From an uncultured Elusimicrobiales bacterium (GTDB lineage: Bacteria; Elusimicrobiota; Elusimicrobia; Elusimicrobiales; Elusimicrobiaceae), in contig CALUXG010000033.1 of assembly GCA_944324685.1 (NCBI GenBank), positions 1 through 43,405 of the forward strand: a DNA stretch of 43,405 nt. The letters are read 5' to 3'. The first letter of the stretch is position 1; every line of letters begins with the position of its first letter. This document shows positions 1-36,175 of the stretch, one piece after another. Under the pieces are notes generated by a model. It was not told the DNA's origin, searched no databases, and worked only from the letters and a program-made list of their open reading frames with translations. Made by a program: the position numbers and the translations under genes.

Positions 1-95
1 TTCCCTTCTTCGGGGATCGGGGCCGGATCATGCTTGGCGCCTTTGCAGACGCAGCACATTTCTTTTACTTCGGGGGTGCATTTTTCGCAGCTCAT
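1..95 (-). CDS. Small Cys-rich protein, N-terminal fragment cut by the window edge
   Basis: A minus-strand reading frame begins with ATG at 95 and runs off the left edge without a stop. The 31 visible residues begin MSCEKC and contain a CxxC followed by a CCxxC arrangement (five Cys in the first 17 residues), which suggests a small metal-binding protein, perhaps zinc. An AGGAG Shine-Dalgarno lies 5 nt upstream (about 101-105), which fixes the start. The function cannot be named from this fragment. It lies just downstream of the terminator of the 185-670 pilin gene, so it is probably transcribed separately. Confidence 0.5.
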   Translation of the reverse strand, partial: MSCEKCTPEVKEMCCVCKGAKHDPAPIPEEG

Positions 96-7055: not shown

Positions 7056-7064
7056 TGCTATGAT
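7056..7064 (+). promoter_or_regulatory. Extended -10 of hydG, predicts leaderless mRNA
   Basis: TGCTATGAT is an extended -10 whose last base is 6 nt before the hydG ATG. The transcript should therefore begin at or next to the start codon. No Shine-Dalgarno is present. Confidence 0.6.
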
Positions 7065-7070
7065 ATATGT

Positions 7071-8453
7071 ATGATTATAGATGATGAAAAACTGCAACGA
7101 ACCTTGGAAAAAGGCAAATCCCACACGGATTGCGAAGTAACGGACATTTTAGAAAAGGCCAAAAATTTACACGGCATCACGCTGGAAGAAGCGGCGGTGC
7201 TTTTGAATATTACCGACAAAAAACTGATGCAGAAACTGTTTGACGCCGCCAAATACGTCAAAGAGGCCATTTACGGCAACCGCATCGTATTATTTGCTCC
7301 GCTGTATATTTCCAATATCTGTACCAATGAATGCGTATATTGTGCGTTCCGCAAAAGCAATACCCGCTTAAAACGCCACGCCAGCACGCGTGAAGAAATA
7401 CACCAAGAAGTTACCGAACTGCTTAAACAAGGCCATAAGCGTATTTTGATGGTGGCGGGCGAAGCGTATCCGGGCGGCGGATTGCAATATGTCTACGACA
7501 GCATTAAAGCCATTTACGAAACGCGCTGGAACGGTCAAAATATCCGCCGCGTAAACGTCAATATTGCCCCGCTGGTGCAAAAAGAATTTGAAGAACTGAA
7601 AAAATGCGGAATAGGCACGTATCAGCTTTTCCAAGAAACATATCACAAAGAAAGCTATGAAAAGCTGCATTTGGACGGCGCCAAGAAAGATTATCAGTTC
7701 CGCCTTGACGCCATGGACCGTGCCTTAAAAGCCGGCATCAATGACGTCGGTATCGGGCCTTTGCTGGGACTGTATGATTACAAGTACGAAATACTGGCCA
7801 CACTGGAACACTCGTTCTATCTGGACAGCACCTACGGAGTAGGCCCCCACACCATATCCATTCCGCGCATAGAACCGGCGGAAGGATCTGACTTCAGCCT
7901 GCATCCGCCTTATCAGCTGAGCGACGATGATTTCAAAAAAGTCGTGGCCGTTATTCGTCTGGCGGTTCCATATACGGGCATTATATTAAGCACGCGCGAA
8001 AGCCCCGCCATGCGCAATGCGTGTCTGGAGCTGGGCGTATCGCAAATTTCCGCCGCTTCGCGCGTAAATCCGGGCGGGTATTCCTATGACAAACAGAACG
8101 GCAGCCAGTTTACACTGACCGATGAGCGCACCTTGGCCGAAGTGATAGACGCCATTGTGGATGCCAAACACATGCCGTCTTTCTGCACGGGCTGTTACCG
8201 CTTGGGCCGCGTGGGCAAGGACTTTATGGACATGGCCAAACCCGGATTAATTAAAAAACATTGCCTGCCCAATGCCATGTTTACGTTTGCGGAGTATTTG
8301 GAGGACTTTGCCCCCGCCGCATTGAAGGCCAAAGGCTACGCGCTGATTGAAAGCACCACAAAGGAAAACTTTCAGCAAGGCACGCCGATACGCCAAATGA
8401 TAGACGAAAATCTGTCCAAGATAAAAACCGGCAAGCGCGACCTGTATTTTTAG
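7071..8453 (+). CDS. hydG: [FeFe]-hydrogenase maturase HydG (radical SAM tyrosine lyase)
   Basis: 460 residues. HydG cleaves tyrosine to p-cresol and supplies CO and cyanide for the H-cluster of [FeFe] hydrogenase. The radical SAM cluster motif C84-x3-C88-x2-C91 is visible. A second C-terminal motif, C372-x2-C375-x22-C398, is the CX2CX22C signature that separates HydG from the related ThiH (tyrosine lyase of thiamine synthesis). An in-frame upstream start at 7011 lies inside the preceding terminator and is unlikely. The ATG at 7071 has no ribosome site but sits 6 nt after a -10, fitting a leaderless transcript. hydE, hydF and the hydrogenase itself are not in the window. Its presence implies hydrogen metabolism and an anaerobic life style. 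Confidence 0.9.
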   Translation: MIIDDEKLQRTLEKGKSHTDCEVTDILEKAKNLHGITLEEAAVLLNITDKKLMQKLFDAAKYVKEAIYGNRIVLFAPLYISNICTNECVYCAFRKSNTRLKRHASTREEIHQEVTELLKQGHKRILMVAGEAYPGGGLQYVYDSIKAIYETRWNGQNIRRVNVNIAPLVQKEFEELKKCGIGTYQLFQETYHKESYEKLHLDGAKKDYQFRLDAMDRALKAGINDVGIGPLLGLYDYKYEILATLEHSFYLDSTYGVGPHTISIPRIEPAEGSDFSLHPPYQLSDDDFKKVVAVIRLAVPYTGIILSTRESPAMRNACLELGVSQISAASRVNPGGYSYDKQNGSQFTLTDERTLAEVIDAIVDAKHMPSFCTGCYRLGRVGKDFMDMAKPGLIKKHCLPNAMFTFAEYLEDFAPAALKAKGYALIESTTKENFQQGTPIRQMIDENLSKIKTGKRDLYF

Positions 8454-13646: not shown

Positions 13647-13655
13647 ATTTTAGCA
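13647..13655 (-). promoter_or_regulatory. Extended -10 of hisS-aspS
   Basis: TGCTAAAAT on the minus strand ends 8 nt upstream of the hisS ATG. Confidence 0.55.
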
Positions 13656-26645: not shown

Positions 26646-26659
26646 TGCTATAATTATAG
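26646..26659. promoter_or_regulatory. Palindromic divergent promoter, lipA / SpoIID-like gene
   Basis: CTATAATTATAG (26648-26659) is a perfect 12-bp palindrome that gives TATAAT on both strands. On the plus strand it is preceded by TG (TGCTATAAT, 26646-26654). The two start codons are only 21 bp apart, so both messages should have almost no leader, and the two polymerase sites overlap. Confidence 0.65.
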
Positions 26660-36113: not shown

Positions 36114-36121
36114 ATTTTATA
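36114..36121 (-). promoter_or_regulatory. -10 of the dapF-dapL-pilin operon
   Basis: TATAAAAT on the minus strand; TAAAAT (36114-36119) ends 7 nt before the dapF ATG, and TATAAA (36116-36121) 9 nt before it. Confidence 0.5.
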
Positions 36122-36169: not shown

Positions 36170-36175
36170 TACAAT
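36170..36175 (+). promoter_or_regulatory. -10 of uppS
   Basis: TACAAT ends 6 nt before the uppS ATG at 36182; the bases between are all A and T. No Shine-Dalgarno. Confidence 0.5.

What the first reader, a model, noticed from the sequence alone, without database searches (positions are those of the whole stretch)
7056..7071. Widespread predicted leaderless transcripts
At ten starts a good -10 ends only 6-10 nt before the start codon and no Shine-Dalgarno is present: hydG 7071, coiled-coil 10378, hisS 13638, ybaK 22296, lipoprotein 25727, lipA 26643, SpoIID-like 26665, dapF 36106, uppS 36182, LpxL-like 39019. Since transcription starts about 7 nt after the -10, these mRNAs should begin at or a few nt before the ATG. 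In the same window other genes (serC, dksA-like, RDD-pilin, lpxK) have clear Shine-Dalgarno sites. The first genes of operons are leaderless while internal genes are coupled by ATGA overlaps.
Basis: partly seen in the sequence, partly recalled or inferred. Interest (0 to 1): 0.6.

Follow-up and report, generated by a model that had tools for sequence, protein, structure and literature searches.

The report
Leaderless genes in Elusimicrobiaceae gut bacteria
In this gut bacterium about a quarter of the genes at the front of operons have their promoter pressed against the start codon, so their messenger RNAs should begin at the first letter of the protein code; this is known from other bacterial groups but appears undescribed in this one.

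Summary
All ten starts carry a TAnnnT -10 hexamer ending 6-10 nt before an ATG and have no Shine-Dalgarno (SD) core. The window is from an Elusimicrobiaceae MAG. In a 378-kb sample of its genome, 41 of 165 predicted operon-first genes have a strong promoter 4-9 nt before an in-frame ATG, against 0 of 126 operon-internal genes and 1 of 149 first genes of E. coli, Bacilli and Clostridia. Spacing peaks at 6 nt and the excess is ATG only. Orthologues in the family keep the arrangement: hisS 19/19, lipA 30/30, LpxL 26/30, uppS 23/30. The promoter is an extended -10, roughly AAWWTGnTAWAAT, with no detectable -35. The same promoter at longer distance serves SD-led genes (SD in 41/62, against 2/66 when adjacent). 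Best reading: leaderless mRNAs alongside ordinary SD initiation. The kind is known (Actinobacteria, Deinococcus-Thermus and others); the clade looks new. "First genes are leaderless" overstates it: about a quarter are. No RNA data were available; 5' ends are inferred.

The parts
7059..7064 (+). -10 hexamer TATGAT, 6 nt before hydG ATG (7071)
   Evidence: protein is HydG by TIGR03955
   Evidence: no Pfam family
13647..13652 (-). -10 hexamer TAAAAT, 8 nt before hisS ATG (13638); block TAAAATGCTAAAAT kept in relatives
   Evidence: TIGR00442
22283..22288 (+). -10 hexamer TATAAT, 7 nt before ybaK ATG (22296)
   Evidence: TIGR00011
   Evidence: no Pfam family
26653..26658 (-). -10 hexamer TATAAT, 9 nt before lipA ATG (26643)
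   Evidence: lipoyl synthase
26649..26654 (+). -10 hexamer TATAAT, 10 nt before SpoIID-like ATG (26665); an alternative TATAGT ends 4 nt before it. Overlaps the lipA -10 as a palindrome in a 21-bp spacer
   Evidence: SpoIID domain
36114..36119 (-). -10 hexamer TAAAAT, 7 nt before dapF ATG (36106)
   Evidence: TIGR00652 aligned from residue 1
36170..36175 (+). -10 hexamer TACAAT, 6 nt before uppS ATG (36182)
   Evidence: TIGR00055
39007..39012 (+). -10 hexamer TATAAT, 6 nt before the ATG (39019) of an LpxL-like acyltransferase
   Evidence: PF03279
38947..38952 (-). contrast: -10 TAAAAT 28 nt before lpxK ATG (38918), with a GAGG SD between; divergent partner of the LpxL promoter
   Evidence: TIGR00682

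Best explanation
These are housekeeping sigma-70 promoters of the extended -10 type (A/T run, usually TGn, then TAWAAT, no -35 needed) placed so that the usual start point, about 7 nt after the hexamer, falls on or within a few nucleotides of the A of the ATG. The mRNA then has no usable 5' leader. The ribosome would start at the 5'-terminal AUG through initiator tRNA, without SD pairing. The rest of the operon is translated from SD sites or by ATGA-type coupling. In the same genome the same promoter, placed 20 nt or more upstream, serves ordinary SD-led genes. Shown here: motif, spacing, frame, codon and SD statistics, and conservation. Inferred: the 5' ends and the way the ribosome starts.
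For: Ten of ten starts verified. Genome sample (window plus 20 stretches, 377,980 of 1,397,896 bases): 41/165 first genes against 0/126 internal genes (P = 8e-12) and 1/149 control first genes (P = 7e-12). Distance to the next ATG: 41 promoters at 4-9 nt in the gene's frame, 5 and 2 in the other frames. With three genes used for the matrix dropped, 20 of 38 lie at exactly 6 nt; ATG 38 against 4 and 6 at two control offsets, GTG 2 (2 and 3) and TTG 5 (5 and 7) at background; 200 column-permuted decoy matrices give 3.9 genes on average, 17 at most. Loose SD in 2 of 66 adjacent-promoter genes (expected 3.0) against 41 of 62 distant-promoter genes (expected 5.9); a second strong promoter upstream in 4 of 66. 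Orthologues: hisS 19/19, lipA 30/30, LpxL 26/30, uppS 23/30, dapF 3/3, while lpxK on the other side of the LpxL promoter is 3/25. lipA/SpoIID: 21 bp between start codons. RpoD keeps H455 and E458 (extended -10 contacts; role and numbering recalled) and the region 4.2 motif.
Against: No RNA 5' ends. Start calls come from a home-made codon-usage caller on a 27% sample. With a looser hexamer rule (TAnnnT, 4 of 6) the own-sample contrast shrinks to 63 hits at 4-9 nt against 30-38 in later 6-nt windows, and E. coli shows 5 in-frame hits in 28 first genes. At a 7-bit threshold the three control groups give 3 adjacent cases. The intended positive control, Deinococcus, gave 0/48 with the AT-rich matrix and only 4 hits in 48 genes with the loose rule, against 1 at 10-15 nt, so the matrix cannot measure high-GC genomes. 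T at -1 is enriched before adjacent-promoter ATGs (26 of 38) but is also common at SD-led (49 of 99) and internal (50 of 125) starts, so it is weak support for +1 at the A. SpoIID orthologues are TA-led in only 13 of 30 rows, and its spacing (10 or 4) is off the optimum. Seven of 30 uppS and 4 of 30 LpxL rows fail the rule.
Confidence: 0.88

Rival explanations
1. The A/T-rich hexamer is not a promoter but a translational enhancer or S1-type site in an SD-less leader, with transcription starting further upstream.
For: SD-less genes of other phyla show A/T or U bias near -10 that might be S1 binding (PMC5397173, passages). The genome has an open frame with three S1-domain matches.
Against: 0 of 126 internal genes have it. 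The signal is sequence-specific and fixed at about 6 nt. A second strong promoter upstream is rare (4/66). The same motif occurs 18-50 nt upstream of mostly SD-led genes, where it is best read as a promoter.
Confidence: 0.06
2. Short-leader mRNAs: the promoter is real, but transcription starts a few nt before the ATG and the ribosome uses a minimal leader, not a strictly leaderless start.
For: Gaps of 7-10 nt (six of the ten window starts: coiled-coil, hisS, ybaK, lipA, SpoIID, dapF) would leave 1-4 nt upstream of ATG if +1 is 7 nt after the hexamer (the 7-nt rule is recalled).
Against: The mode is exactly 6 nt, where the seventh base is the A of ATG (20 of 38). Leaders under 8 nt are counted as leaderless for archaea in PMC10783764 (passage).
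Confidence: 0.25
3. Chance: A/T-rich spacers before ATG create TATAAT-like words.
For: Intergenic background of 5/6 hexamers is about 7-15% per 6-nt window (11-25 of 165).
Against: 43/165 in the 4-9 window, frame specificity, decoys, and conservation at about 40% protein identity (LpxL) while bases further upstream are not conserved.
Confidence: 0.01

Closest known systems
TA-led (leaderless) genes of Zheng et al. 2011, 207 of 953 bacterial genomes (PMC3160421; passages and section 7 read)
   Same: TAnnnT signal around 12 bp before the start, SD absent, both modes in one genome; TG-extended form with a probably missing -35 described for Lactococcus
   Different: Elusimicrobia is not among the groups named (one 'unclassified' genome is), and the word does not occur in the main text; here about 25% of operon-first genes of a mid-GC Elusimicrobiaceae MAG
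-10-motif adjacent to ORFs in Deinococcus-Thermus (Zhong et al. 2025, PMC12340547; outline, first of three parts of Results, and section 11 read)
   Same: -10 motif about 6-7 bp before the ORF, promoter function shown there with reporters, about 30% of ORFs
   Different: the Elusimicrobiaceae motif is TAWAAT with an A/T run and usually TGn; ATG only in my data; CarD, present in Deinococcus-Thermus, is listed as absent from Elusimicrobia, 3 genomes (PMC4593161, one table passage)
GeneMarkS-2 leaderless class (21.6% of bacterial species, as cited in PMC9581028, passages)
   Same: predicted leaderless transcription in part of the genes of a genome
   Different: the original paper was not seen; whether it includes Elusimicrobia is unknown

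Membership tests
Bacterial leaderless (TA-led) genes | -10 hexamer at a fixed distance of about 6 nt from the start codon | tested here: met
   peak at 6 nt, 20 of 38; orthologue spacing mode 6 or 7 for uppS, LpxL, hisS and lipA
Bacterial leaderless (TA-led) genes | no SD site | tested here: met
   0 of 10 in the window; 2 of 66 loose, expected 3.0
Bacterial leaderless (TA-led) genes | operon-first genes only | tested here: met
   41/165 first against 0/126 internal in the own sample; G016 and G008 each have 1 internal case (1/30, 1/33)
Bacterial leaderless (TA-led) genes | AUG start codon strongly preferred | tested here: met
   ATG in excess, GTG and TTG at background; SpoIID: 12/12 ATG when TA-led, 13/17 GTG when SD-led, by reading the 30 rows (one row empty)
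Bacterial leaderless (TA-led) genes | mapped mRNA 5' end at the start codon | not testable with these tools
   no transcript data
Extended -10 sigma-70 promoters without -35 | TGn before the hexamer | tested here: met
   G is the commonest base at -2 from the hexamer in hisS, LpxL and uppS sets (0.81-1.00); the lipA set has A (0.53); genome set T 0.74, G 0.58
Extended -10 sigma-70 promoters without -35 | no conserved -35 | tested here: met
   0.01-0.24 bits at every position from -44 to -8 of the hexamer; TTGACA at 5 of 6 or better in 2 of 98 rows at spacing 15-19 and 1 of 98 at 25-29; 1/66 against 3/66 and 2/66 at control spacings. Limit: uppS alone has both hits and a slightly higher mean
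Loss of the SD system (Flavobacteriia-like) | 16S lacks CCUCC | tested here: not met
   GGCTGGATCACCTCCTTT in 7 of 7 Elusimicrobiaceae searched; 8 of 9 genomes in all, G090 without a match. The own MAG has no 16S match

The most novel reading that the evidence does not exclude
Elusimicrobiaceae run two exclusive initiation tracks off one -35-less promoter type, chosen only by the promoter-to-ATG distance: about 6 nt gives AUG-only leaderless mRNA and about 20 nt or more gives SD-led mRNA, with fewer promoters between. Orthologues flip between tracks by sliding the promoter, changing start codon (ATG to GTG) and gaining an SD, as SpoIID does, while core envelope, lipoate and tRNA genes (lpxL, uppS, lipA, hisS) are held on the leaderless track across the family, perhaps because it is regulated separately.
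Probability: 0.3. Interest if true: 0.55.

Novelty: new member of a known kind. Interest (0 to 1): 0.42.

Why it matters
It adds a bacterial group in which sequence predicts many leaderless mRNAs, gives a promoter model for a clade known mostly from MAGs, and lets gene starts be called better (my codon-only caller missed the coiled-coil, SpoIID, dapF and uppS starts and lost lipA). The divergent pairs lpxL/lpxK and lipA/SpoIID give natural side-by-side comparisons of leaderless and SD-led initiation.

Tried and rejected
A search of plasmid records with hisS did not place the organism. Simple hexamer counts on codon-only starts gave the peak but noisy starts; replaced by candidate-start and frame-resolved tests. 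T at -1 as a mark of the transcription start was tested and found weak. An altered anti-SD was tested and rejected. A CarD link was dropped because Elusimicrobia are listed without CarD. Deinococcus as positive control for the matrix failed. The wider phylum: order relatives 7/65 (P = 0.001 against controls), class relatives 2/89 (P = 0.56), other families 11/233 (P = 0.03); with the loose rule the class set has 8 hits at 6 nt, so the boundary of the trait is open. One genome (G066) gave no genes and drops out of all counts. The more distant locus L019 shows no such motif at the guessed hisS start (its start is uncertain).

Literature: searches pairing Elusimicrobia or Endomicrobia with leaderless, promoter or SD terms (broader, ten of 15 hits listed) showed no description of leaderless genes there; apart from the papers named here I saw listings only, and most subscription papers are not held.

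Full report
What was claimed.

Check. All ten are there as described. Family models support hydG, hisS, ybaK, lipA, the SpoIID domain, dapF and uppS, and the LpxL-like acyltransferase at Pfam level; the coiled-coil and lipoprotein genes match no Pfam family. DapF aligns to its family model from residue 1, which supports that start independently of the promoter.

Organism. hisS is 92% identical to three MAG contigs named uncultured Elusimicrobiales. The window is bases 1-43405 of contig C33 of a 1,397,896-base MAG. I sampled 20 further stretches, 377,980 bases with the window.

Genome statistics. With a codon-usage gene caller I split genes into operon-first (upstream neighbour on the other strand or more than 60 nt away) and internal (same strand, 25 nt or less). 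A 5/6 TATAAT hexamer lies 4-9 nt before a candidate ATG in 43 of 165 first genes; same-width windows further upstream give 11-25. I built a matrix from the upstreams of four orthologue sets (hisS, LpxL, uppS, lipA) and measured the distance from each site of 9 bits or more to the next ATG in each frame. In the gene's frame 41 sites fall at 4-9 nt; in the other frames 5 and 2. First genes with such a site: 41/165; internal 0/126; E. coli 0/28, Bacilli 0/56, Clostridia 1/65, Deinococcus 0/48 (Fisher P about 1e-11 without Deinococcus). After removing the own genes used for the matrix (165 to 162; lipA is not a separate call in this caller), 38 remain, 20 of them at exactly 6 nt. The codon in that place is ATG 38 times against 4 and 6 at two control offsets, while GTG and TTG stay at background. 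One of 38 has a strict SD. Column-permuted decoy matrices give 3.9 genes on average, 17 at most. With a looser hexamer rule the contrast is smaller (see evidence against).

Two architectures. In five of the seven Elusimicrobiaceae genomes sampled, 66 first genes have the promoter adjacent and 62 have it 18-50 nt away. SD cores (loose) are in 2/66 (expected 3.0) and 41/62 (expected 5.9). Four of 66 adjacent cases and 8 of 62 distant ones have another strong promoter upstream. Both classes share the A/T run, TGn and hexamer. TTGACA at 5 of 6 or better at 15-19 nt: 1/66 and 5/62, with control spacings giving 3 and 2, and 1 and 4; the control organisms give 6/34 against 2, so the test can see a -35. 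In the own sample 41 sites lie at 4-9 nt, 8 at 10-20 and 36 at 21-50; the trough between is modest.

Conservation. hisS: the block TAAAATGCTAAAAT, with single variants in L005, L010, L015 and L016, plus a short spacer is the only clear conservation upstream in 18 Elusimicrobiaceae. By rows with distinct upstreams: hisS 19/19, lipA 30/30, LpxL 26/30, uppS 23/30 and dapF 3/3 are TA-led, all with ATG; lpxK, divergent from LpxL, only 3/25, with strict SD in 12 of the other 22. Hexamer-anchored, the four sets show 0.01-0.24 bits at every position from -44 to -8, and TTGACA is not enriched overall (2 of 98 against 1 of 98). SpoIID is mixed: 13 of 30 rows. Near relatives share the roughly 21-bp palindromic spacer with lipA (L081-L084, L086, L088; L089 slightly longer; L087 broken by extra sequence). 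Reading the 30 rows (L081-L110), 12 are TA-led and all 12 start with ATG (L105 and L106, at 10 and 9 nt, are the least sure); 17 are SD-led, 13 of them with GTG; one is truncated and empty.

Machinery. The anti-SD is intact in the seven Elusimicrobiaceae searched. RpoD in the own sample and in G005 keeps the residues that I recall as contacting the extended -10 and -35 elements in E. coli, so the sigma factor looks ordinary. Four sigma-70 region 2 matches and an S1-repeat frame are present.

Range. Six other Elusimicrobiaceae genomes: 28/208 (P = 2e-6 against controls). Order relatives 7/65, class relatives 2/89, other families 11/233. The trait is clear in the family and probable in the order; beyond that it is open.

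Verdict. Leaderless transcription as a regular mode in Elusimicrobiaceae, alongside SD initiation. The kind is known from Zheng 2011 and the Deinococcus work; I found no report for this phylum in the searches named. 5' ends remain to be measured.

Noticed in passing
window 37595 (-), 29348 (-), 696 (-); 20 matches of its core in G000 with 3 mismatches or fewer, 0 for the reversed control; 9 copies read: Type IV prepilin-like genes share a roughly 100-nt 5' region: TTGACT (7 of 9) or TTGATT (2), a poly-T run of about 10-17 whose length differs between copies (interrupted in L147), GATACCCT (altered in L153 and L158), ATAC, then a conserved stretch ending in an AGGA- or GGAG-type SD in 8 of 9 before the pilin ATG (the L153 frame is only 27 aa). 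A homopolymer between -35 and -10 would make these promoters candidates for phase variation by slippage.
   Followed up: partly
same 9 pilin copies, ATG or GTG right after CTATAC: A short ORF (..LRRVFERLNAVIG..) starts in all 9 copies and stays open through that stretch in 8; it is out of frame with the pilin ATG in 7 of 9. Minor-base counts by codon position are 20, 14, 26, so a leader peptide is possible but unproven.
   Followed up: partly
L314 upstream of the LpxL orthologue: The -10 ends 12 nt before the ATG, but an in-frame ATT lies 6 nt after it; a possible non-canonical leaderless start, one case only.
   Followed up: no
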